Shown here: positions 13,023 to 56,100 of the stretch, in pieces
Layout: the number at the start of each line of letters is the position of its first letter
How positions within the stretch are numbered: position 1 is the stretch's first letter
Source of the DNA: Zanthoxylum bungeanum
Taxonomy: Eukaryota; Streptophyta; Magnoliopsida; Sapindales; Rutaceae
Reading direction: 5' to 3'
Length of the DNA: 64,000 nucleotides
Assembly (NCBI GenBank): GCA_019454045.1
Contig: SKCR01035557.1
Coordinates: 148,403-212,402, forward strand
Notes under the pieces: generated by a model
Told to the model about the DNA's origin: nothing
The model's input: only the letters and a program-made list of their open reading frames with translations
Database searches by the model: none
Translations under genes and position numbers: made by a program

Positions 13023-14407
13023 TCATCCTCTATCCTCATGGAAGAAACTGGGTGGTTGAGAGTTTGGAGGACAAAGCTTTCGGGCAGGCCGGAGTTTATC
13101 ATGTAAGTGGGTGGGGGACATAGTGGTAATTTGGTAGAGGGTTACGATGTGTGTTGGGTTGTTCTTTCTTAGGATCAGGTATTTTATGGGCATCAATGAG
13201 GCTTTGGATTTCATGCCTAAGGCGGGTACAGTTGTCAGTTTCGTGGCCCTCCTCTGATGGAAGTGACAATACAGGCTTAGGTCAAGGTTGGGTGGTATAG
13301 GATCTGGAAGTGGTTTAGGCTCTAAGGGTTTTAAGAGTCCTTGTCCCTTCAACTTTTCAAATACCTTCGACAAAGGTCTACCCAGGTTGGAGAATTGCCT
13401 ATTTCTGATGGAAGCGACTTCGGCAGTAGCAGGCTTGGTCTCAGAATGCCCCCTAAAAGTCCTCATATTCTGGTCATAGAACTTTCTGTTCTCAGCTTCT
13501 TCTTCTTCTATATCCATGACAGTTTCCCTCAACTGTCGAAAATATGTAATCATGGAGGTCATTCTCCTCAACTTGCCATAAATGAAGGGCTTAGTACCCT
13601 TAATAATCATCTTTATTTGGTCCTTCTCCGAGGGCCTTGTCTGCATCTTCAGTAGCTGGCTTCTCCAGCGGTCCACATACTCCTTGAAGCTTTCTTCCGG
13701 CTTCTGCTTAGTGTTCTCCAAATCACAGAGTGACAAATCAATCTCTAAGTCTGTAACATACTGTTTCAGAAATGCATCTACCAATTCCCTCCAATCTTCT
13801 TTAACCTTTTTCTCAAGGTTGTGATACCACACTACAGGTGCCCCCTCGAGTGACATCCCAAACATCTTTTGGGCTTGGCGCTGTGACAGGCCCACTGAAC
13901 TCATCACCGAGACATATTGCCGCAGATGGACCATCGGGTCCCCATTCCCATTGAACTTAGCCATATCAAACATCTTGAACTGAGCAGGCAACTTTTCCTC
14001 AAAGGTCATCGCCTCAAAGTCTATAAGTCTTCATCCTTACCCTTCATCTTACGGGTAACGGACTCTACCTGGTCATGAAGTTTCTGTATCTCGGCCTGAG
14101 ACCCGGCTATTCTCCCAGCGTCATATTCAGCCATATCATCATCAAAAGCGGGGATGTCATCCCCCAACCTATTCGGAGGCTCCTCACGTCTTACATTCTC
14201 AGAGTTTCCCCCAGCACGGGGCACAACCATATTTTCCATGGCAGAAGTCAAGGCTTGCAACTGTTCAGTAATTTTGGCGAAACCATTTTCCAACTGATCT
14301 ATCCGGGATACCTCGTTATCGGATGTACTCATATCTGTTACCAGTCTTTTAGTGAGTCTTTCATCTTCCCTAACCCAACGGGAATCTTTAATGGCTTTTA
14401 GACACAA
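13023..14407 (-). pseudogene. Ogre-like gag, frameshifted
   Basis: Frame 14407-14021 holds an acidic N-terminal part with a coiled-coil-like stretch (IDQLENGFAKITEQLQAL). Frame 14009-13023 holds a gag capsid core: KFNGNGDPMVHLRQYV, then WYHNLEKKVKEDW and LKQYV. A run-off into another frame occurs close to 14020. A zinc-knuckle-like motif starts YCHFHQ near 13265; a single-base shift there moves the rest (a GHxTxxC half) into the next frame. Gag packages element RNA into virus-like particles. Neighbours are the leader upstream and an integrase tail downstream, with no protease or RT. The breaks may be decay or base-calling error. Confidence 0.85.
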
Positions 14408-40921: not shown

Positions 40922-41529
40922 TGTAGACTCTGATTTCGGCCAAGGTCCACAATCGAGATTATCAATTTGTAGGGCGCGAGTAAATCCTGCAAAACAAATA
41001 GAACGAATAAGGAGCTTACTGCCCACCGGTGTGGTGGAAACCGTAGACACTCCGACGCTCAAGTTAGTGATGGTATCGATCAACGTAAAGTAAACTGGTC
41101 AAGGCTTTTTATGTACCTCAACCTTCTGTTGTATGCCGTGAGGGCGGTTGTGAATCAGTTTCGTCTTTGTAATTAGGGTGGTCTCTTTTTCGATCCCCTT
41201 GATGGTGTCTTTCTTTCTTCTTTTATAGGTATTGGTATCCCCCCTTTATCTGCCCGTTGGAGTTATTATTAATGAGGCTTTGATTCGGATGTTCCATACT
41301 CGGTAACTGACGATCTTGTCTTCTCCCTGAAACCGTCGACTTCATGGTAGTATTTATGAATGCGGATTCTTTCTTCAAGTTTGTAACTGGCGCCCGTTGA
41401 TCTTCTTTATGTTCAACAGGCCTGGACCTTTGTGTAATATCTTCGTATGTGGGCCCAGTTTGCAGATGGGCTTCTAGTCTTGTGGTGTAATGTAAGTTTT
41501 TGCCCTTAGAGTCAATTTTGGCCCAAACA
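40922..41529 (-). repeat. 3' LTR of the Tat element
   Basis: 608 bp, TGTAGACTC to CCAAACA in plus-strand reading. LTR TATA: minus CTATAAAAG at 41220-41228. Differences from the other LTR are mainly one- to few-base indels. Confidence 0.92.
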
Positions 41530-41555: not shown

Positions 41556-41886
41556 AAGTCTTTAGGCTTGGAGAGTACCTTTGTATGTTCCGAAAATAAG
41601 TCTTCCTTGCTTTCGTTTATAGCCTGTAAGGGAGTGTCCTATGCTGAGCGAACCGGATTGCTTTTAGAAAGAATCTCACTCGGCATGTCGCATGGACCCA
41701 ATGGGTGGCTCCGGATGTTTGAACCAGTGGGAGGTGGGAGTGAGTTAGTTGAAAGTCTCATAGTGCGATTGATCCTTATCAAGCGTGATACACAGATAGT
41801 GAAAGTCCATATATAGCCATTTACATGTCGTATAATTGGGGATATTCTTTGTCTTGACATGGCCCGTAGGAAGTCTCTGGATGAAC

Positions 41887-43010
41887 TCACTCGACACTGT
41901 TGTATGGGAATAGTGAATGTCTTTGCTCCAATTTGACTCGACGTGAGTCATCCAGGGATGTCCCTGTGTGATTGAACCTTGAGATGGTTCAGGAGTGATT
42001 TCACTCGACACTGTCGTATGGGACGAGTAATTTCCGTAACTCAGATCTGACTCGACATGAGTCACTTGGGGGATGTCCCCTGTCGACTGAACCTTGAGGT
42101 GGTTCAGGAGTGATTTCACTCGACACTGTCGTATGGGACGAGTGAATTCCATAACTTAGATGAAACTCGACATGAGTCACTGGGGGATGTCCCCTGTCGA
42201 CTGAACCTTGAGGTGGTTCAGGAGTGATTTCACTCGACACTGTCGTAAGGGACGAGTGAATACCATAACTCAGATATAACTCGACATGAGTCATTTGGGG
42301 GATGTCCCCTGTCGACTGAACCTTGAGGTGGTTCAGGAGTGATTTCACTCGACACTGTCGTAAGGGACGAGTGAATACCATAACTCAGATATAACTCGAC
42401 ATGAGTCCTGGGGGATGTCCCCTGTCGACTGAACCTGAGGTGGTTCAGGAGTGATTTCACTCGACACTGTCGTAAGGGACGAGTGAATACCATAACTCAG
42501 ATATAACTCGACATGAGTCACCTGGGGGATGTCCCCTGTCGACTGAACCTTGAGGTGGTTCAGGAGAGGATTTCACTCGACACTGTCGTAAGGGACGAGT
42601 GAATACCATAACTCAGATATAACTCGACATGAGTCACCTGGGGGATGTCCCCTGTCGACTGAACCTTGAGGTGGTTCAGGAGTGATTTCACTCGACACTG
42701 TCGTAAGGGACGAGTGAATACCATAACTCAGATATAACTCGACATGAGTCACCTGGGGGATGTCCCCTGTCGACTGAACCTTGAGGTGGTTCAGGAGTGA
42801 TTTCACTCGACACTGTCGTAAGGGACGAGTGAATACCATAACTCAGATATAACTCGACATGAGTCACCTGGGGGATGTCCCCTGTCGACTGAACCTTGAG
42901 GTGGTTCAGGAGTGATTTCACTCGACACTGTTATATGGGACGAGTGAATTCCATAATTCAGATATAACTCGACATGAGTCATCTGGGGGATGTCCCCTGT
43001 TCGACGTTCT
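41887..43010. repeat. Ten 115-bp tandem repeats next to the 3' LTR
   Basis: Units start TCACTCGACACTGT at 41887, 42001, 42116, 42230, 42345, 42457, 42573, 42688, 42803 and 42918 (spacing 112-116). Each has the inverted pair TCACTCG/CGAGTGA about 16 bp apart. Nine of ten have TGAGTCA within CGACATGAGTCA or a close variant. The middle units are nearly identical, pointing to recent unequal exchange. Minus-strand open frames here are repeat artefacts. Confidence 0.92.
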
Positions 43011-43116
43011 CCATGCCGTAATACTTTGACCCAGTTCAACTGTTATTAATGCAAACCCTATCGCGGATTACGAGGAGTTTTTGGCGGGAATATTGGCGCC
43101 AAATTGAGTATGGGTG

Positions 43117-43123: not shown

Positions 43124-43369
43124 GGGGTATGGGCGTTTCATTTTTCCTCATTTGGGAAGTCGAGTAAGGAGAGCTCTCAAGTGTTTCTCAAGGTATTCTT
43201 CACTAACTTCCTCTTGTTCTTCAATTCTTTTAAGCATTCATTGCAATATTCAAGCTGTTCTTAGGTTACTCTGGCTGTTTGATCTTTGGGTTAGTGTGTT
43301 TAGCTTAAGAATCGTGTTTGTGGTTTTTGATCTTCAAGGGGTAGATTACTAGAGAGTTTAATTGTTTAT

Positions 43370-45627
43370 ATGCTTGTTGTTTGGAAAATGTCGAGTGGAG
43401 AGTCTTTAGGCAGCTTGGGAGCCAAGATAGATAGTTATGTCGAATCATCGAGTGAAACTGAGGAGGAGGTAACGTACAAAGACTGGTCGTACGAAAAACT
43501 GATTGAGAAAGGTGTAGTTACCCTGGCCATGTCTCCTCGGGAGACTCCTACTGAGGCAATACCTCTAAGATCAATTCCTGCAATTGAGGAGCCGAGTGAC
43601 TTTCCTTGCACCAGTGAGCCTACCAACTTATTATCCAGGAATCCTGCTAGTCGTATGACTGGGAAAATGCTGAGGGAACTCAGTTGTATGTATAGATTTC
43701 CTGAGTCTCTAGAACTCCGAGTGCCTTCGTCGACTGAGAGAATTGATTACAAGGTCCCGGGGTGGATGGGTTTCTACGTTCGTCCGTTTAAAGTAGGATT
43801 GAGGTTTCCAATCCCCAGACTGGTCTGGGAAGTGTTGAACCATTTTGAAATTGCTCCGTCTCAATTGATGCCAAACGCATGGAGGATTCTTTTGTCGATT
43901 GAGTGCTTAGCCTTCGAGTTGGGTGTACTCTTCGAGGTAAATGATGTTCTAGAGACATATTACATAAAGGAGCATCTGAAAGAGAAAGGGAGATATACAA
44001 TGATCCTTCGACAAAGAAAGAAGCATCTAGTCATTGGATTGCCGACTAATGATAGGGGAAACTGGCAGTCCTACTACTTCTTCGCAAGGGGTGAGGGTAT
44101 ATTTGGTTTGACTGGGGCTGGTCGAATCCCAGAGTTTTGGTGTTTGTCGAGTGAGTGATGTTCTTTTCTAAGTTATAGGTTATAACTGTGTTTTGTGTTT
44201 TTGAATAACCAAGGTTTGTCGTTGCAGATCCTCTTCGAAACAAATCGTTCCTCTCAACTGTTCGCTCCACCTCAAACGTCGAAGCAATTCTATCTTTGCC
44301 AGACGACGTAAGGAACTGCAAGGCCATCTTAGAGGAGAAGAGATTAAGGGCGACTCCATTGTGGAAGGAAATTTATCAGCGCGAAGGTAAAGTTCTGGCC
44401 CTCTCTAACGACGTTTTGGCCGTGATAAACTGTAGGTGGTCGATTCAAAAATTGTATGGGGTGAATAAAAAATATCGAGAGCCCTTAAAAATTGAGGAAT
44501 TTTCATGCGCAGAGGAGATGATGTCTGGTCCATTCACAGTAGCTTCACTCGACGAAATGAAGAGCAGAAAAAAGTCGAGGAAACTGAAGAAGAGAGAATT
44601 AGAGGTCGAAAGAGAAACTGGCACCCAACATCAGGAGATGATTTCAAGTGGGGGTGTCGTAGAAAAAGGGAAGTCGATAGACATTATCTCATCTGAGAGA
44701 AAAGAAAAGGAAGTCTGTCGCAGAGGTGGAAACTGAAGAGGACTCTGATACCCTTATTTTGAAAGTTCCAAAGGAGTCGACGGCAATTTCAGACCCTTCG
44801 AGCATCGACTCATTCGTTGAGGGTCTTCTACTCCAAGGGGATGAAGTGAGATTGGCACAAATTGGGCCGGCGGAGGCCATGAAAAAAGCCATCGCTCTAA
44901 ACTACCAAGTGAGTATCATCATTCCTTTTTTTTTTTTTTAGTTGTCGAATGGTGCTCTGATTTGAATGTCGTAGGCCCTGGAATGTAGCTTGTTCTTGCG
45001 GAAAAATGCTGAATCCAACCAAAAGAGGGTCAAGGAGCTAGAGAAGGGTTTATCAGCTGTAAAGAAGGAGTCGTCTATATTGAGGTCTGGACTGGTTGCT
45101 TCGCAGAGAAAGGAGAAAGTTCTCGAGAAGGAGCTGAAGGAAGTGAAGGCTAGCTTGAAGCTGGAAAAGGAAACTGCCGAGTTAACAATTGAAGGTTACA
45201 AGGAGGGTTTCAACAATTTGAAGAAGGAGAACGAGTTGCTGTTGGAACAAATGGAGGATATCGCTATTGACTCCATGATGAAGAATAGATACGACTTGAT
45301 GCAAGAATTCGTTGCTGGAAAACATGTCGACTGGAAGCCTGAGAAATGGATCAGTGAATATGAAAGGCGCGCCGCTGGAATTTCCTCGTCGACAGAAGAA
45401 GAAGATGTAGAAGCAGGAACAGAGGTAGAGATGAGGAAGAGGAGGCTGAGCTAAATCCAACGACGTAGTAGAAGCGATGATGGAAGTCGAGAAGGACACA
45501 GAAGTAGAAGAAGAAAATGTGGCACAAACCGCTGTCCATTCTGAACCGGTGGATGTGGAGGGTGAAGGAGACGTTCCAACCAGCCAACCAGCAACGACGG
45601 ATGCAGACGGAGCTGACGTTTGATGTC
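43370..45627 (+). pseudogene. Antisense spliced gene of the Tat element, gypsy-type transposon domain plus coiled coil
   Basis: Exon 1 runs from ATG 43370 (or 43388) to 44147; GTGAGT donor, then acceptor TTGCAG at 44227. Exon 2 is 44228-44911, ending TACCAA before GTGAGT; the acceptor GTCGTAG ends at 44974. Exon 3 is 44975 to TGA near 45627. Both introns join open frames in phase. Exon 1 holds a domain of the Transposase_28 family, which is known only from such elements: GWMGFYVRPFKVGLRFPIP, then IAPSQLMPNAWRILLSIECL (residues about 135-185). Exon 3 is a long coiled coil (KELEKGLSAVKKESSILRSG and onward) with an acidic tail. Single-base shifts occur in an A-rich run near 44690-44715 and near 45450-45475, so it may be broken or miscalled. 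Function unknown. It points towards pol, tail to tail. Confidence 0.8.
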
Positions 45628-45887: not shown

Positions 45888-48160
45888 TCAATCAAAATTA
45901 CCGGATAAATTTTTTAAGTGTGCACCGCGTTCCAGCTGTTGCGGATTGGTTTCCCTCATGGTTTCCAACTTGTAGGCTCCTTTCCCAACAACTCTAACAA
46001 TTTGATAAGGGCCTTCCCAATTAGGGCCCAACTTCCCATCTCCACCTTCTTTCGTGCTCTGGAATACTCTCCGTAGGACCCAGTCACCGGCGCGGAATGT
46101 CCTGGTCCTAACGTTTTTGTCGAAATACCTGGCCACCCTTTGTTGATATGTGGCCAGTCGGATGAAAGCCGTGTCCTTTTTCATCCTTCTCGTTCCATTA
46201 ATCAGTTGTTGTGTCTTTGTTTCGTTGTCGAGCCACTGGCATCGTGGTGAAGGGATGACTTCTTCGGATGGAATTACAGCTTCCGTCCCAAATGCCAATG
46301 AGAATGGAGTTTCGCCGGTTGAGGATCTCACGGTTGTCCTGTACGACCACAAGACTCCAGGTAATTCTTCAGCCCAGGCGCCCTTCGCTTTCTCCAACCT
46401 CTTCTTCATAGTGTTCAAGATCGTCTTATTGGACGACTCTGCTTGCCCGTTTGCTTGTGGAAAGCGCGGCGTCGAGTAATTTAGTCTGATACCCCAGTTC
46501 CTGCAGAAATTTTGAAAGTGATGGCTGATGAATTGTGATCCATTGTCGGTCACAATTTCTCTGGGAATGCCGTACCGGCATATGATATTCTTCCATACGA
46601 ACGTTTGAGCCTCCTTGTCACGTATTCTAGCAAATGCTTCGGCTTCAATCCACTTCGTATAATAATCTGTCATTACGAGCATGTAGACTCGTTGGCCTGA
46701 AGCGACTGGAAGTTTTCCAACAATGTCCATGCCCCATTTCATGAACGGCCATGGAGACAGGATTGGGCTCAGCTTCTCTGGTGGTAGATGAGGGACCGGT
46801 GCGAATCTCTGGCACCTGTCGCATTTCTTTGTGAATTCTGCGGAGTCGAGTCTCATTGTCGGCCAGTAATACCCTGTCGTGTGGGCTCGGAGAGCCAGAC
46901 TTCTGCCACCTGAGTGGTTCCCACATTCCCCTTCATGTAATTCAGACAACACATGCTGGGCTTCGTCGTGTGTCAAGCATTTCAAGTATGGTCCCGAGAA
47001 GGATCTTCGTAACAGCTGGCCTTCGAATACCACGAACCTTGCAGACTGTCTCTGTATCTTCCTTGCCAGCACTTTGTTTTCTGGAAGTACGCCGTTCTGC
47101 AAGTATTCAATGATCGGTGTCATCCAACTGTCGACTGAAGCGATAGCGGCCACATCCGTCTCTTCCTTCCAAATTGCCGGCCAGTTCAGAAATACTATAG
47201 GTATTGCTTGTGGTTTGTCGCCCTCCAGAGTCGAACCGAGGGTCGCCAGTGCATCTGCCCGGGAATTTTCGCTTCTTGGGATCTGTTTTATGGAGAATGT
47301 GTCGAATGCAGTTCGTAGTTCATTTACCTTCTGTAAGTAAGAGGCCATTGCTTCACCTCTTGCATGATACGATCCCTCGACCTGGTTGACAATCAGCTGA
47401 GAATCCGACGTTACTTCTATCTCCTTCGCTCCCAGTTCCTTGGCCAATAATAATCCTGCAATCAACGCTTCGTACTCGGCCTCATTATTGGTTACTCGGA
47501 AACCGCATTTGACTGCCTGCTGCAGAACGTCGCCAGAGGGAGTAGTGATTACCATACCGAGTCCACATCCCTTTCTGTTACTTGAACCGTCAACCATCAA
47601 TTTCCAAGTATTTGTCGGCTGGATGGAATTGATTTCTGCGTCAGGTGTCGCCACCATTCCGGGAGCAAAATCAGCCACAAAATCTGCCAAGGCTTGGGAT
47701 TTGATTGCCGTCCTGGGTTGAAAGTCAATGTCGTGTTCCCCCAACTCAATTGCCCACTTCATCAATCTCCCAGATAACTCAGGTTTATGAAGAATGCTTC
47801 TCAGAGGATATGTCGTGTACACTGTGATGGCATGACCTTGGAAATAGGGTCTAAGTTTCCTTGCAGCTGTGACCAGTGCGAAGACCAATTTTTGCATCAG
47901 CGGGTAGCGTGTCTCTGCCTCCAACAGTGCTTTGCTTACATAGTAGACTGGCTGTTGACTCCCTGCTTCTTCTCTTACTAAAACTCCACTGACCGCGTGT
48001 TCCGAGACTCCCAGATAAAGGTAGAGCCTCTCACAGTCGAGTGGTTTTGATAATAGGGGCGGCGAAGATAAATATTGTTTGAGCTGCTTCAGAGCTTCCT
48101 CACAAGCAGGAGTCCATTCGAATTTACTTGCTTTTTTAAAGCTGAGAAAAATAAAAAACT
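45888..48160 (-). CDS. Pol C-terminal part: RNase H, archaeal-type RNase H, integrase
   Basis: One continuous frame on the minus strand. The first RNase H (about 48060-47700) has lost the usual leading Asp (VSEHAVSGVLV) and looks structural. The second has an intact four-acid set: MVDGSS, NNEAEYEAL, TSDSQL and SRADALA (about 47600-47230), the archaeal-like RNase H of Tat elements. Integrase follows: HHCC finger (HEGECGNH, then CDRCQRF), catalytic D in WGMDIVG, D in VTDNGSQF and E in QAESSNKTI, then a GPYQIVRVVGKGAYKLE tail. It removes RNA from the RNA-DNA hybrid and inserts the copy. Upstream, a single-base loss in an A run near 48138 separates it from RT. The end at 45888 is a true stop. Confidence 0.92.
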
Positions 48161-49161
48161 CCTATCGGTTGATTTAGAAATGAACCTGTTTAATGCCGCT
48201 ATCCGCCCAGTTAGTCGCATAACATCCTTCGGGGTGGAAGGGGAAGGGATGTCGAGGATTGATCTAATCTGGTCTGGATTTGCTTCAATGCCTCGTCGAG
48301 TGACTATGTATCCCAAGAATTTTCCTGAAGCGACACCAAATGCACACTTAGTAGGATTTAATTTCATTCCGTACCTGTCCATGATGTCGAAGGCTTCTTC
48401 CAGATGGTTGAGATGTTGTTCTGATTCAATGGATTTCACCAACATGTCGTCAATATAAACTTCCATTGTTTTCCCTATTTGTTGGTCGAACATCCTATTA
48501 ACCATTCGCTGGTATGTTGCTCCTGCGTTCTTCAAGCCAAAAGGCATGACTTTGTAACAGAATATTCCTCGATTTGTAACAAAAGCTGTTTTCTCTTGAT
48601 CTTGAGGATGCATGAGGATCTGATTGTAGCCTGAATACGCGTCCATGAAGCTTAATAACTCGTGTCCAGCGGTCGCATCCACCATCGAATCAATATGTGG
48701 TAAAGGAAACGAGTCCTTTGGACAGGCTCTGTTCAGATCCGTGAAGTCGATGCACACCCTCCACTTCCCATTCTTCTTTTCACTACTACAACATTGGCAA
48801 GCCACTCGGGAAACTGTACTTCTTTAATCGCTCCGTTCTGCAGTAACTTTTGCACCTCTTCATCAATGATCCGGTTTCTTTCTGGGGCAAACTTCCTTCT
48901 TTTTTGTCTGACAGGGGTGTGGTCCGGATCCACATGCAGTGCGTGAGTGATGAGATCCGGATCAATTCCTATCATATCCTCATGTGACCATGCGAACGTG
49001 TCGTGCCGTCTTTTCAAGAATTCTATCAGGTCGGCTCGCAGTTTTGGACCCAGACCCGCTCCAACCAAAGCCTTGTGTTCCGTGAATTGAGGATGAATCT
49101 GGACCTCGTCGAGCTTCTCAATATTCGGTAGAGTAGGCTCTGACGCACTAGGTCCAGACAG
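48089..49161 (-). pseudogene. Pol N-terminal part: reverse transcriptase, one frameshift
   Basis: Directly downstream of the UAG at 49168-49170 and in the same frame as gag-pro. Blocks: FKRRHDTFAWSHEDM, RRKFAPERNRIIDEEV, then after a one-base shift in an A run near 48780, RVCIDFTDLNRACPKDSFPL, DAYSGYNQI, VMPFGLKNAGATYQ and the catalytic YIDDM (near 48450). These are the ordered Ty3 RT blocks with both catalytic Asp present. The frame ends early at 48089 because of a second one-base loss in an A run. Otherwise intact, so the breaks could be sequencing errors. Confidence 0.9.
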
Positions 49162-49170
49162 TAATTGCTA
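49162..49170 (-). promoter_or_regulatory. Stop codon in readthrough context (UAG CAA UUA) between protease and RT
   Basis: On the minus strand the gag-pro frame ends GAT CCG GCA TAG and continues CAA TTA CTG in the same frame for about 100 open codons into RT. UAG followed by CAAUUA fits the CARYYA rule for stop suppression known from tobamoviruses and from a plant retroelement env junction. The position is where Ogre elements are known to place a regulated intron, so a dosage switch between gag-pro and pol is plausible. Confidence 0.65.
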
Positions 49171-51258
49171 TGCCGGATCTGGTTTAGCCTTCAAGGTCGT
49201 TTGGTAGCAACTCCTTGACGCCAATTGATCCCCCTTTACCTCCTGAATCCCCCATTTAGTCGGGAATTTAATTACCTGATGATAGGTAGACGAGACCGCC
49301 CTCATGTCGTGAATCCAAGGTCTGCCCATAATCAAGTTATAGGCCGATGGGCTGTCCAATACCAGGAAAGTAGTCATTTTATTAACACCTGCAACATAAA
49401 CGGGGAGTCGTATTTCCCCCATAGTCAACTTTTGTTCTCCGCTAAAACCGATTAATACTGTCGTACGCCTATTGATGTTATCCAACGCCGTTCCCATGTC
49501 GGTCAGAGCACTGGCAAAGATAATGTTAGCTGAGGAGCCCGTGTCGACCAGCACACGTCTGATCATGAAGTTCGCCACTTGAAGAGAAATGACCAAAGCG
49601 TCATGGTGAGGGTTTAGATCTTGTGAGTCCCCATCATCCGGGAACCCAATTACCAAACCCGTGGTAATTCCCTCTACAGACATTAGGGTGTGTGAGGCCT
49701 TGGTGGCCAATACCCTCGAGTGCCTTTTTGCAGCAGAATAAGTAGCTCCACTAACTTCTGATCCCCCAGAAATGACATTGACTGTGTTATCAATCGGAGG
49801 TGGTGGTATTGGAATTTCTCCATGTCTGTCTCTTTCATCCCTTCGGGTCATTGTTGCCTTCCCCTTGTCCGTAAGCAAATCTTTCAAAAATCCTTTGTTC
49901 AGCAGTTCCAAAACCTCTAGTCTCAAGGCAACACATTCCGCCGTCGTATGACCGTAGTCCCTGTGGAACTCACACCATTTCTTAGTGTCTTTTTTGGATG
50001 AACTATCCCTTGCCCTTGGAGGCCACTTCACTTCATTCCCTAATTTCTTCAACACCGAAACCAATTCCCCCGGAGAAATTGTGAAATTGTAGTCTGGAAG
50101 CCGAAGCTTACTTGTCGGAAGCTCCTCCCTGTTTTTATATGGCCGTGGACGTCTATCCATTTTTTGTAGAAGGGTCGACGTTCGCCCCTACTTTGGTTCC
50201 TCCCTTCGGTTCGGGGGGGGGGGGGGGGGTAGTGTGTTCGTGTCGCCTGGAAGCAACTGGCCTTCGGTTTGCTTGTGCATTTGTTTCATCAACTCTTCTC
50301 TTATTTCTTTTATCCTCTTCCCACCTTATCTCTACTTGGGCTCGTGCCATGACCTGGTCCATTGTGTAGCACCTGAATTTCGTCAACTTCTTGTAGAGCC
50401 CGCTGTCATAAAGGAGTCCATTCCTGAAGGCTTCAACTGCTGTTGGCTGATGGAGGTCCGGTATGGTTATTCTCTCACGGTTGAACCGGGCCACGTAGCT
50501 TCGTAATGTTTCTCCTCTTCTCTGTTGTACTGAGTTAAGGTCGTCCGTCGTTTTTTCCATCCTGCACGAACTTGCGAAGTGTTGCACGAACTTGTCCGCC
50601 AGTTCTTGGTATGATTTGATTGACCTGTAAGGAAGATTAATGAACCATGTCAAGGCAGGTCCCGCCAGAGTTCCCCGAAGCACCTGCACATTCCGGCCTC
50701 CCATTGGCTCGGAGACAAACCGTTCGACATCATCTTGAATTTGTAATGCATGACGTGGTCGTCTGGATCTGTGGTCCCATCATATAACTTCATTTCAGGT
50801 GGGTTGAATTTCCTGGGCAACTCAACTGCTACAATTGACTCATGGAAAGGGGTATCTGAAATTGTCCCGGCCCGGCTTTTCCTGATCGGGAGTTTCACCC
50901 CTGGTAGTCGTGACATAACTGCTTCTTTGAATTCAACCATTTCTCTTCTGATGGAATTGGCCAGTTGATGGGCTTGATCACCAAGAGGGTCTGATCTGAA
51001 TGTAGGTGGCTGGGGGTGATTGCTGTTTGGTTCATCTGACACGGGTGGAGCAGTTGGATTACTTCGGTTATCCCTATCGCTAGTTTGGCCTTGAGGATTA
51101 TGCAGAGGGTCGGATGATAGGTGATCTAGCCTTTGTTGTAAACTTTCGTTGGTATTTCGCATCGTGAGATTTTCTTCTTCCAGGTTTGTGAGTCGTTCTT
51201 GGAGCATGGCAATTTGTACCGCTAGTTGATCTGGGATATGTTCGTTGCTTGACGCCAT
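49168..51258 (-). pseudogene. Gag-protease of the Tat element, two frameshifts
   Basis: The ATG at 51258 lies 70 bp inside the 5' LTR. The N-terminal part has a coiled coil (MLQERLTNLEEENLTMRNTN) and a Pro-rich linker; the capsid core follows with LYDGTTDPDDHVMHYKFKM, then TWFINLPYRSI and RRGETLRSYVARFN. A zinc knuckle reads [14 protein letters not shown] (near 49945). Protease has [11 protein letters not shown] (DTG) and the downstream [10 protein letters not shown]. Frame changes fall near 50676 and at the homopolymer of 17 C (50213-50229). Gag forms the particle and protease cuts the polyprotein. Ends at the readthrough-context UAG. Confidence 0.9.
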
Positions 51259-51309
51259 TGTTTATTACTTTGTTGAGACGTTCTACTTCCTGTCGATTCA
51301 CTCGTCAGC

Positions 51310-51328: not shown

Positions 51329-51931
51329 TGTAGACTCTGATTTCGGCCAAGGTCCACAATCGAGATTATCAATTTGTAGGGCGCGAGTAAATCCTGCAAA
51401 ACAAATAGAACGAATAAGGAGCTTACTGCCCACCGGTGTGGTGGAAACCGTAGACACTCCGACGCTCAAGTTAGTGATGGTATCGATCAACGTAAAGTAA
51501 ACTGGTCAAGGCTTTTTATGTACCTCAACCTTCTGTTGTATGCCGTGAGGGCGGCGGTTGTGAATCAGTTTGTCTTTGTAATTAGGGTGGTCTCTTTTTC
51601 GATCCCCTTGATGGTGTCTTTTTCCTTTTATAGGTATTGGTATCCCCCCTTTATCTGCCCGTTGGAGTTATTATTAATGAGGCTTTGATTCGGATGTTCC
51701 ATACTCGGTAACTGACGATCTTGTCTTCTCCCTGAAACGTCGACTTCATGGTAGTATTATGAATGCGGATTCTTTCTTCAAGTTTGTAACTGGCGCCCGT
51801 TGATCTTCTTTATGTTCAACAGGCCTGGACCTTTGTGTAATATCTTCGTATGTGGGCCCAGTTTGCAGATGGGCTTCTAGTCTTGTGGTGTAATGTCGTT
51901 TTTGCCCTTAGAGTCAATTTTGGCCCAAACA
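51329..51931 (-). repeat. 5' LTR of the Tat element
   Basis: 603 bp, TGTAGACTC to CCAAACA in plus-strand reading, followed by TCTT. LTR TATA: minus CTATAAAAG at 51625-51633. Confidence 0.92.
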
Positions 51932-53118: not shown

Positions 53119-56100
53119 TCACACGAAAGACCAGTTTATGAAGGAGAAGGCAAGACAGTGGACAGTGTTCTCTTCGGCGGCAAGAACTTTCCATGCAATG
53201 GCTTGTTCATACGAAACGTGACGCCCCATTGTCGACACGCACAAGCCAGCCGGCAAGTAAGTGAACCCCTGATAAGAATGTGTAGTTTTCTGAGACTTCA
53301 AATTCACAATCAACATTTATATCCTTTCTCCGTTTCCCTTTTGGTCGCATAAGAAGTTTCAAATGAATACACTGTGAATATATGCATGTATATTATTACC
53401 TGTTGCATTAACTTGGCAAAATCAGCACACAATGCCTTTTGCCCAGAATCATCAAAGATCTTATCCAGTGTTACGTCTTGTAGAGCCACTAGAGTCGTCT
53501 CCAGCATGTCAAGGCCGGCTTGGTTTGCGAAGATGAAAACTGGCATTGACTGCACCGTAACAACGATACATTAACAAATAATCCTGAATATTAGCCTAGA
53601 ATTTCCAGAAACGCTTTTAATACATGATATACTGTCTCTAGCATAATATATGAACTTGTGAAATATACCTTCAATGAACAACACAATATCGCATCTGAGT
53701 GCTGCCAAAGATTTTTCAACACTGAGTCACCGTCAACAGAATCAGATCTCAACTCTGCCCCTAAATGATAACTGCAGAAGGTGAAAAGGAAATATTAGTG
53801 CTAATTCTCAGAAAATTGCTAATTGTGCTGGTTACATCAAGAGCACGTTTCACTAAATCGACATTAGGATCAATTACATTACATGTGTCCAAATCATTAA
53901 ATATTTATTAAGAAAAAATTGATTCAGAACTTGCCTATAGCTCTGGCAGATCCAGTGAGCTAGTGTAAGTGCTTCTGGAGAGCCTGGTGAAAGCTTTGGC
54001 CCCAAAGTTGGGCTCAATCCGGACGGAGAAATGGCCATGGCCACCCTCTGAACAGATGAAATCACACTACGAACATACTGACGTGCCATGGCTGCTACAT
54101 TGTCTTGTAGATTGCTCTCAAAAGGGAATTGGAAGGCAATAGTCAATACAGATCGTGAGTTATGGCATGATGAAGAATCTCCTGCAGCCGGGTTTGTCGC
54201 TGGGCCAACTTCAAGACTTGATGTCAGATCTAGGGTTCGATGTGTAGTCAACTTATCCTGTCTATCAGGCTGCATAACATCATTAGCATGTTGAGGTAAA
54301 AGACCATAGTATGAAATCAAGCAACGCAGTCTAAAATTCCACATTATTGATCCACACGTTTAACGATTCTAAATAAAATTAATCCAAGGTTTATGAGTCC
54401 AATGAGCAAAACACTTGAACCTTATGTAAATTAACATTGGCAACTTTAACAAAAGGAATTTCACTAGATAAACCAAGGGAACCAAAAGTTACAACTAAAC
54501 TTTCTCCCAAGCTTGTATAAACATCAATACTGTGAAAAGACAATGAAAAGTTCAAGTGAAGTTAAACCCAACTGTTTTTGAATCCAACGGGATAATGCGG
54601 AAACCAGAGGGTAACAATGGACCATCATCTGGAAACATCTCATCAATTGGGGCAAAGACAAGTTCAGAACATGATCCCACAGCATTTTCATCAACCCCGC
54701 TACATATCTGAGCAAAATAATTACAGAATAGAAAAAGATTAGACCCCTTCCACCTCAAATTTAACAAAAACAAAATGACAAATAGTTATATAGAAACAAG
54801 ATGCAAAAAGCACCTGCAGTAGATGAATGTCCCTTGATACAAAAGCATCTTCTTGTGCAAGAGAATGCCCCTCGAGTCGGATAACTTCAAGCGACTGAAA
54901 AATTCAGAGCTAGAAATAATTAGTGTAGAACAGCAATGAATAATTAACTGTAAAACACACATATGAACAGCAGACAACTGTCAAAATCTCCTTATTAGAA
55001 GAGTCCTTAAGGGGGCAAATGAGAAGACAACTAATTGAACAAACCTCTTCATGCTCAATTGTGTGGCCAAGGGGCATGATAATTTGGCTCCCAGTAAACC
55101 TCGTAGGTCTCATTCCTGGATAGGCATAGGAACCCGCTTTCAGTGATGCGGCAGAATAGGCATCAAAATTGAAATCAGCCCACTCGGAGCGATGCTCCCG
55201 CAGGAAGCGGACAAGCACAGCAGGAGGAACATTCTGGCCGGAGAAAGAAAATAGATACAATCCTGTCATTTTTAGAGCCAGAGCCCAAGTATAAAAAGGA
55301 ACACTATCTTGAACAAACAGGACTAATAAAAACCTAGGTTCAAATTAACAGTTCACCAAATATTCCTATGTGATTGGAGAATTGTGTTCAATTGGCACTT
55401 CAGGAACATAAAATACAATCCATTTCCATCAACAAATGCATTAAATATATTATTTACAATGTTATTCACCCACTAGCACGAAAGTGAAAAACATTTTGGA
55501 CAACTAAGCCAAATTTCTAAGCCAACAATAGATTCAGAGCTCAAGAACCATTTTGGCAGTGGTGCTACTCTAGAGTCTAGACTATACGCAAAGTTTAAAT
55601 CTACAGACAAAATAACACATTTCAATCATGCTGAAATGGTTATGACAACAAGAATGTATAACAGCAAACATAAGAATTAGAACTTGTAAATAAAAATCAG
55701 AAACTTACTTGGAGTAGCATGGAAGCCTTTGCGCAGAGAATACCTCCAAGTAAAGCAAGGGAATTGGTTGGATTAGATGCATTGCTCAAACTCTTGGTTG
55801 AAGTAACTGCAATTATCACATCTTCGGCACCATCACAGGTCATCAATGACCAACCATCATCATTAAACCCATTGACAGCATCATTGAAGCCTCTATAAGA
55901 AAAAAAAATCAAAAAAGATATTACAGAAACGTGCTACATTCTAAAACTTCAAACTAGATAGACAAATAACTACAGTATGGATGTTGTGCAACTACAACGA
56001 TAACAAAAACCAAGCTAATCCTACAGCTACCTGCTTAGTCTTTGGCTGAAAGTTCTGAGAACAGCTGGCTGCCTGCCCAACCCATATACTACTTCGCCAC

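What the first reader, a model, noticed from the sequence alone, without database searches (positions are those of the whole stretch)
49162..49170. UAG CAA UUA readthrough context between protease and reverse transcriptase in a Tat retrotransposon
The gag-pro frame ends TAG and stays open in the same frame into RT. The following CAATTA is the exact suppression context of tobamovirus stops (CARYYA rule), also used at a plant retroelement pol-env junction. In Ogre elements this same boundary is controlled by a regulated intron. Here a stop codon seems to do that job, which would be a different solution in the same lineage for keeping gag above pol.
Basis: partly seen in the sequence, partly recalled or inferred. 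Interest (0 to 1): 0.85.

Follow-up and report, generated by a model that had tools for sequence, protein, structure and literature searches.

The report
Leaky stop between protease and RT
A very abundant family of plant jumping genes keeps a stop codon, followed by the same six letters that make the tobacco mosaic virus stop codon leaky, between its protease and its reverse transcriptase, most likely so that the enzymes are made in smaller amounts than the shell protein.

Summary
On the minus strand, a young Retand-type (Tat) Ty3/gypsy element has its gag-protease frame closed by TAG (49170-49168), then CAATTA; the same frame stays open into reverse transcriptase. At 182 places of the host genome (144 distinct local sequences), TAG is kept at 181 and CAATTA at 180. 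In 26 codon-intact representatives (mean identity 69% outside the motif), the only invariant third-codon positions of 30 are the two inside CAATTA. Both sides are under purifying selection, including about 60 codons before the usual first in-frame ATG, so RT is best reached through the TAG. Of 120 listed gag-protease relatives, 80 end at exactly this residue; relatives that read on lie mostly outside that clade. A stem 8-10 nt downstream has partial support. This copy also has four frame breaks; at least one is shared by a few other copies. Two-ORF Retand elements and plant-virus UAG-CARYYA readthrough are known; their combination here was not found in the papers searched. Readthrough was not measured, and DNA after the stop was read in one genome only.

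The parts
49168..49170 (-). UAG codon that ends gag-PRO
   Evidence: sequence; TAG at 141 of 142 and 40 of 40 places of the genome
49162..49167 (-). CAATTA, the CARYYA type I readthrough context, first two codons (Gln-Leu) of the RT side
   Evidence: CAATTA at 141 of 142 and 39 of 40 places; the only invariant third-codon positions of 30 in A3
49150..49159 (-). 5' arm of the predicted stem, starting 8 nt after the stop
   Evidence: partial support
49097..49106 (-). 3' arm of the predicted stem (codons 21-24 of the RT side, low synonymous variation)
   Evidence: partial support
49168..50187 (-). C-terminal gag and aspartic protease frame (339 codons), closed by the TAG
   Evidence: aligns with gag-PRO proteins of eudicots; no Pfam hit of its own
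50153..51261 (-). gag, in two overlapping frames in this copy (50153-50779 and 50650-51261)
   Evidence: Retrotrans_gag in 50153-50779
48733..49167 (-). start of the RT-side frame, same frame as PRO, no in-frame ATG in its first 64 codons
48089..48823 (-). reverse transcriptase core (shifted frame in this copy)
   Evidence: RVT_1, E 7.2e-35
45888..48161 (-). RNase H, second (archaeal-type) RNase H, integrase
   Evidence: RT_RNaseH_2, RVT_3, Integrase_H2C2, rve in this order
43331..44158 (+). antisense ORF with Transposase_28 domain, a Retand mark
   Evidence: PF04195, 26.2 bits, equal to the cutoff
41880..43095 (-). tandem array of about 115-bp units between pol and 3' LTR
51329..51931 (-). 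5' LTR
40922..41529 (-). 3' LTR
   Evidence: AAGA flanks both outer ends (read)

Best explanation
Programmed stop-codon readthrough. Most ribosomes that translate gag-PRO stop at UAG and release Gag-PRO. In the UAG CAAUUA context, helped perhaps by a stem that starts 8-10 nt downstream, a minority insert an amino acid (tyrosine is the likeliest in plants) and continue in the same frame to give Gag-PRO-RT-RH-aRH-INT. This sets a fixed excess of Gag-PRO over the polymerase, with the protease on the Gag side of the switch. Shown here: position, conservation of stop and hexamer, coding constraint in one frame on both sides, and in most representatives no ATG that could start the RT frame early enough. 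Inferred: that readthrough occurs, how much, and what the ratio is for.
For: TAG 181 of 182 and CAATTA 180 of 182 genomic places. In 26 representatives the six columns are invariant although mean pairwise identity outside them is 0.69 (minimum 0.46), and 0 of the other 28 third-codon positions are invariant. In 40 close copies variants fall mostly at third codon positions on both sides of the stop in one frame (13/6/4 before and 14/8/4 after, third/first/second). In 21 representatives dN/dS is 0.147 on the PRO side, 0.119 on the RT side, 0.125 for codons 3-64. First in-frame ATG at codon 65 in 17 of 21, codon 34 in 3, none found in 1. In 13 of 40 copies the TAG is the only stop in its frame in the whole fetched piece; in 2 of 8 long pieces at least 553 codons before and 556 after are open (these two may be one insertion on two contigs). 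Of 120 listed gag-PRO relatives 80 end at exactly this residue and 12 more within 4 residues, in Cannabis, Humulus, Salvia, Acer, Spinacia, Beta, Tripterygium, Pistacia, Brassica and others. Three relatives that read on keep Gln-Leu after the site: Microthlaspi Tyr-Gln-Leu (P0041, P0226) and Brassica Gln-Gln-Leu (P0122). UAG CAA UYA is leaky in plants (PMC2754532, PMC5382211; passages).
Against: No translation was measured. DNA after the stop was read only in one genome; for other plants only the position of the stop is seen. Perilla-type relatives that read on in the same clade (P0005, P0147, P0156, P0236) do not keep Gln-Leu. Related elements without the stop exist and are presumably viable (Perilla, carrot, Fagus and others), so the switch is not indispensable. 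A 2025 survey reports one gag-pol ORF in 37 of 63 Retand clusters and, as I read its percentages, in 83% of the eudicot ones (PMC11963269), so the stop form may be a minority of recently active clusters. The stem: RNAalifold on A3 keeps only 4 pairs (-1.14 kcal/mol); the number of pairs with changes on both sides (3 against 2.4) and of pair types is not above shuffles; QLM subfamilies do not form it. The places scored are the best of 2204, 31,671 and 78,654 first-look candidates, so they lean to well-kept copies, and only 144 of the 182 local sequences differ.
Confidence: 0.88

Rival explanations
1. The TAG is an ordinary nonsense mutation in a decayed copy (for example CAG to TAG by cytosine deamination).
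For: This copy has four frame breaks; random stops are common in plant LTR elements (PMC6317226, passages).
Against: The stop is at 181 of 182 places across several families and at the same residue in 80 of 120 listed relatives, with an invariant hexamer behind it in 26 of 26 representatives. The element is young: the LTRs differ by 1 substitution and seven short indels.
Confidence: 0.02
2. The stop is tight; pol is made from a spliced mRNA (as in Ogre), from its own transcript or by reinitiation.
For: Ogre, a sister clade, uses a partly spliced intron here (PMC6317226, passages). Several Centaurea gene models lack the segment at this place, as if an intron had been put there.
Against: Coding constraint runs on right after the TAG, and the first ATG lies at codon 65 in 17 of 21 representatives, behind about 60 conserved codons. 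Splicing or reinitiation gives no reason to keep CAATTA letter for letter. No RNA data were available.
Confidence: 0.06
3. The ribosome bypasses the stop by hopping or frameshifting rather than by decoding the UAG.
For: No direct evidence; hopping was considered for the TMV site (PMC2754532, passages).
Against: The RT frame is the same as the PRO frame; mass spectra at the TMV site showed tyrosine and no hop product (PMC2754532, passages).
Confidence: 0.03

Closest known systems
Tobamovirus replicase stop (type I readthrough, UAG CARYYA)
   Same: UAG followed by a CARYYA hexamer, in-frame extension, plant host (PMC2754532, PMC5382211; passages)
   Different: RNA virus replicase, not a reverse-transcribing element; 25 nt around the stop suffice there, here a downstream stem may also matter
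Ogre retrotransposons (Tat, sister of Retand)
   Same: switch at the same boundary, gag-PRO before and RT-RH-INT after (PMC6317226, passages)
   Different: Ogre has a partly spliced region of on average 274 bp between the ORFs; here one in-frame stop without a gap
Retand elements with two ORFs
   Same: domain order, antisense Transposase_28 ORF, tandem repeats; some clusters have gag and pol in two ORFs (PMC11963269, passages and first part of section 11)
   Different: the passages read name no mechanism for the two-ORF form
Murine leukaemia virus gag UAG pol
   Same: in-frame UAG readthrough makes Gag-Pol (PMC5009743, passages)
   Different: driven by a pseudoknot (same passages); the stop lies before the protease there (recalled), after it here
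SIRE1 (soybean Ty1/copia)
   Same: stop codon suppression in a plant retroelement (PMC2829016, passage)
   Different: between pol and an envelope-like ORF, not between PRO and RT

Membership tests
Retand clade (Tat, Ty3/gypsy) | extra aRH domain between RH and INT (shared with Ogre) | tested here: met
   RT_RNaseH_2, RVT_3, Integrase_H2C2, rve in order; definition from PMC6317226 (passages)
Retand clade (Tat, Ty3/gypsy) | antisense ORF with Transposase_28 between pol and 3' LTR | tested here: met
   43331-44158 +, 26.2 bits against a cutoff of 26.2; in 97% of clusters in PMC11963269 (abstract), 23% of Retand elements in PMC6317226
Retand clade (Tat, Ty3/gypsy) | RT groups with Retand in a tree of reference RTs | not tested
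   only a PRO tree of relatives was made
Ogre | gag-PRO and RT ORFs separated by a non-coding, partly spliced region | tested here: not met
   coding constraint begins directly after the TAG, no gap; splicing itself could not be tested
Type I stop-codon readthrough (UAG CARYYA) | UAG followed by CARYYA | tested here: met
   TAG CAATTA
Type I stop-codon readthrough (UAG CARYYA) | in-frame extension under coding constraint | tested here: met
Type I stop-codon readthrough (UAG CARYYA) | readthrough product made in cells | not testable with these tools
   needs a reporter or peptide data
Structure-stimulated readthrough (3' stem or pseudoknot) | conserved RNA structure close downstream of the stop | tested here: inconclusive
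   For: 78.4% of cells paired against 16-47% for slid versions, 9 both-side-changed cells against 3.1 in shuffles. Against: only 3 pairs carry them (2.4 in shuffles), 4 pairs in RNAalifold, a 10-bp helix is reached in 114 of 2000 shuffles, absent in QLM subfamilies

The most novel reading that the evidence does not exclude
A two-part readthrough element (UAG CAAUUA plus a downstream stem) was gained early in one clade of eudicot Retand elements and has been kept since as their Gag-PRO to Pol switch, in place of the intron of the sister clade Ogre; it would be one of the most abundant uses of tobamovirus-type readthrough in plant genomes.
Probability: 0.6. Interest if true: 0.8.

Novelty: new variant of a known kind. 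Interest (0 to 1): 0.72.

Why it matters
How plant Ty3/gypsy elements make more Gag than Pol is largely open (my judgement): the passage seen of a December 2025 review names frameshifting and spliced short-gag RNAs as the two main strategies (PMC12786077). Here a defined nine-letter signal, directly testable in standard plant reporters, offers a third way at high copy number in one genome, and the stop position recurs in relatives from many eudicots. It gives a natural comparison with Ogre, which handles the same boundary by splicing, and it warns annotators that such elements may be two ORFs by design and not broken.

Tried and rejected
Searches that led nowhere: gag-PRO piece against plasmids, no match; alignment A1 against viral contigs and genome contigs and alignment A2 against both: no relatives, so plant DNA outside the host genome could not be read. 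A control search with a carrot single-ORF protein (P0007) in the own genome did not complete, so whether the host also carries stop-free relatives is untested.

Considered and rejected: decayed copy; Ogre-like intron; chance motif (six occurrences in the window, but conserved across families). The frame breaks of this copy: the LTRs differ by 1 mismatch and seven indels of 1-3 bases, so I suspected assembly indels. That is not settled: the upstream frame of 339 codons, that is the break near 50.2 kb, is also shown for 6 of the other 118 rows (and for L003), so that break is shared by a few copies.

A wheat paper with many in-frame stops (PMC9744471, passages) concerns random stops and was not relevant.

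Full report
What is there. The window carries one LTR retrotransposon on the minus strand, LTRs 51329-51931 and 40922-41529. Gag (50153-51261, two frames), gag C-terminus and protease (49168-50187), RT (48089-48823), RNase H, second RNase H and integrase (45888-48161) follow in this order. An antisense ORF with a Transposase_28 domain (score equal to the cutoff) and an array of about 115-bp repeats lie between pol and the 3' LTR. These are marks of the Retand clade of Tat elements as given in PMC6317226 (passages) and PMC11963269 (passages and the first part of section 11). No RT tree with reference elements was made.

The finding. Reading the minus strand, the protease frame ends with TAG at 49170-49168, the next six bases are CAATTA, and the same frame is open for 144 codons into RT. 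The nine letters alone mean little: TAGCARYYA occurs six times in the window on the two strands.

Sister copies. The host genome is held (3.96 Gb, 51,709 contigs, unnamed). A DNA search scored 40 of 2204 first-look candidates, a protein search 119 of 31,671, a search with an Acer gag-PRO protein 60 of 78,654. From the first two, 142 places were read (12 duplicates dropped): TAG at 141, CAATTA at 141. From the third, 8 of 60 rows were already held, 40 of the other 52 were read and 12 left: TAG 40, CAATTA 39. The exceptions are L144 (TAT), L024 (CAACAT), L171 (CAATAA). The 182 places hold 144 distinct local sequences; identical ones may be recent copies or one insertion on two contigs. These are the best-scoring copies and not a census.

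More than common descent. Of 194 loci (12 of them duplicates), 169 had an open 30-codon stretch after the stop with the Leu-Asp-Glu motif; these gave 28 representatives at under 95% identity. The filter drops L171, and L024 falls into the cluster of L001, so neither exception of the hexamer is among the representatives (in the earlier set of 21, L024 is one: CAA 21 of 21, TTA 20 of 21). I aligned 26 of the 28, leaving out L046 (its downstream sequence leaves the family) and L127 (two codons missing). They align without gaps. Outside CAATTA the mean pairwise identity is 0.69 and the lowest 0.46; all six columns of CAATTA are invariant; of 30 third-codon positions only the two inside CAATTA are invariant. 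The linkers belong to several families (Gln-Leu followed by LSGPS, MEGSG, QDGARR, QSGPH, QTEPR, QNEPH).

The RT side is translated from upstream. Across 40 close copies, variants fall 13/6/4 (third/first/second position) before the stop and 14/8/4 after it. In 21 representatives dN/dS is 0.147 before the stop, 0.119 after it, and 0.125 for codons 3-64. The first in-frame ATG after the stop is codon 65 in 17 of 21, codon 34 in 3, and absent in 1. So in most representatives about 60 codons under purifying selection lie between the stop and any ATG; they can be translated only by ribosomes coming through the stop or after a splice, for which no sign was seen and no RNA data were at hand. In 13 of 40 copies the TAG is the only stop of its frame in the whole fetched piece.

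Other plants. Of the 120 listed relatives of the gag-PRO piece (310 found), 80 proteins end at exactly the residue before the stop, 12 within 4 residues, 15 run on, 13 end earlier. By their source names they include Cannabis, Humulus, Salvia, Acer, Xanthoceras, Pistacia, Tripterygium, Spinacia, Beta, Chenopodium, Arabis, Brassica, Raphanus, Camelina and Centaurea. The query ended at the stop and the length filter favours gag-PRO sized proteins, which raises the share but not the exact coincidence of ends. Other relatives (carrot, Perilla, Fagus, several Brassicaceae families, many metagenome entries) read through with sense codons. In a quick PRO tree of 102 rows, 89 labelled, the stop label needs 6 changes against 29.7 in shuffles; 13 rows with doubtful gene models were not counted, many forks are weak, and near-copies help such a result. 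Two Microthlaspi proteins have Tyr-Gln-Leu and one Brassica protein Gln-Gln-Leu at the place, one base from a stop and followed by the same two residues; Perilla-type proteins of the same clade do not keep them.

Structure. A stem starts 8 nt after the stop in the window copy (10 pairs, loop 43). Alone it is not significant (114 of 2000 shuffles reach it; z -1.6). Codons 20-24, mostly its 3' arm, have mean synonymous heterozygosity 0.018 against about 0.25 over codons 3-128; this stretch was picked after the look, and single codons elsewhere are as constant. Over 26 representatives 78.4% of cells pair, against 16-47% for slid versions; 9 cells have changes on both sides against 3.1 in shuffles. 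But only three pairs carry them (12/68, 14/66, 20/60; 2.4 in shuffles), the number of pair types is not raised, and RNAalifold keeps four pairs. Without the QLM rows the picture is the same (85.3%, 7 cells against 2.3, two pairs). The QLM subfamilies do not form this stem; they show a short local hairpin of their own (by eye). I take the stem as likely in most subfamilies but not proven.

The copy at hand. Its LTRs differ by 1 substitution and seven indels of 1-3 bases, so it is young. So many indels for one substitution suggest assembly or reverse-transcription indels, and some of the four frame breaks may be of that kind; but the one near 50.2 kb is shared with 6 of the other 118 rows and so is not private. 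Copies with open frames over the fetched piece exist.

Mechanism and its limits. In plants UAG CAA UYA gives 6-32% readthrough, loses it when the base after UAG is changed, and inserts tyrosine (PMC2754532, passages). UAG CARYYA is type I readthrough in plant viruses (PMC5382211, passages). The step from this sequence to real readthrough is inference, as is the role in keeping Gag-PRO above Pol.

Known and new. Two-ORF Retand elements are on record without a mechanism in the passages read (PMC6317226, PMC11963269). As I read the percentages of PMC11963269, most eudicot clusters there have one ORF, so the stop-bearing form is a subset. The passage seen of a review of December 2025 names frameshifting and splicing (PMC12786077). 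Nine searches of the open-access library listed no title or abstract start on this site; 'Retand' with 'readthrough' gave 0 papers. Most subscription journals are not held. Gao 2003 and Havecker and Voytas 2003 are not held either; I know them only from citations and memory.

Noticed in passing
window 40922-41529 and 51329-51931: LTR pair with 1 substitution but seven indels of 1-3 bases: may be assembly indel errors, which could also break other ORFs of this assembly.
   Followed up: partly
window 43331-45454, plus strand: Antisense Transposase_28 ORF is followed by further open pieces on the same strand (44209-44736, 44975-45454), so the antisense gene also looks interrupted in this copy.
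   Followed up: no
window 41880-43095: About ten tandem units of 115 bp in the 3' internal region of the element.
   Followed up: no
window 13023-14030, minus strand: Open frame of 335 codons that looks like gag of another LTR element (by eye, no search made).
   Followed up: no
window 54910-55344, minus strand: Open frame with a stretch that resembles an HD-ZIP III transcription factor (recalled); no Pfam hit.
   Followed up: partly
L155, L156, L158, L193 (QLM subfamilies): These lack the long stem but show a short hairpin soon after the stop in single-sequence folds, perhaps an independent replacement of the structure.
   Followed up: partly
rows: Certain upstream open-frame lengths recur among copies (339 codons in 7 of 119 rows, 369 or 370 in several), so some frame breaks in gag are shared and not random.
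   Followed up: no
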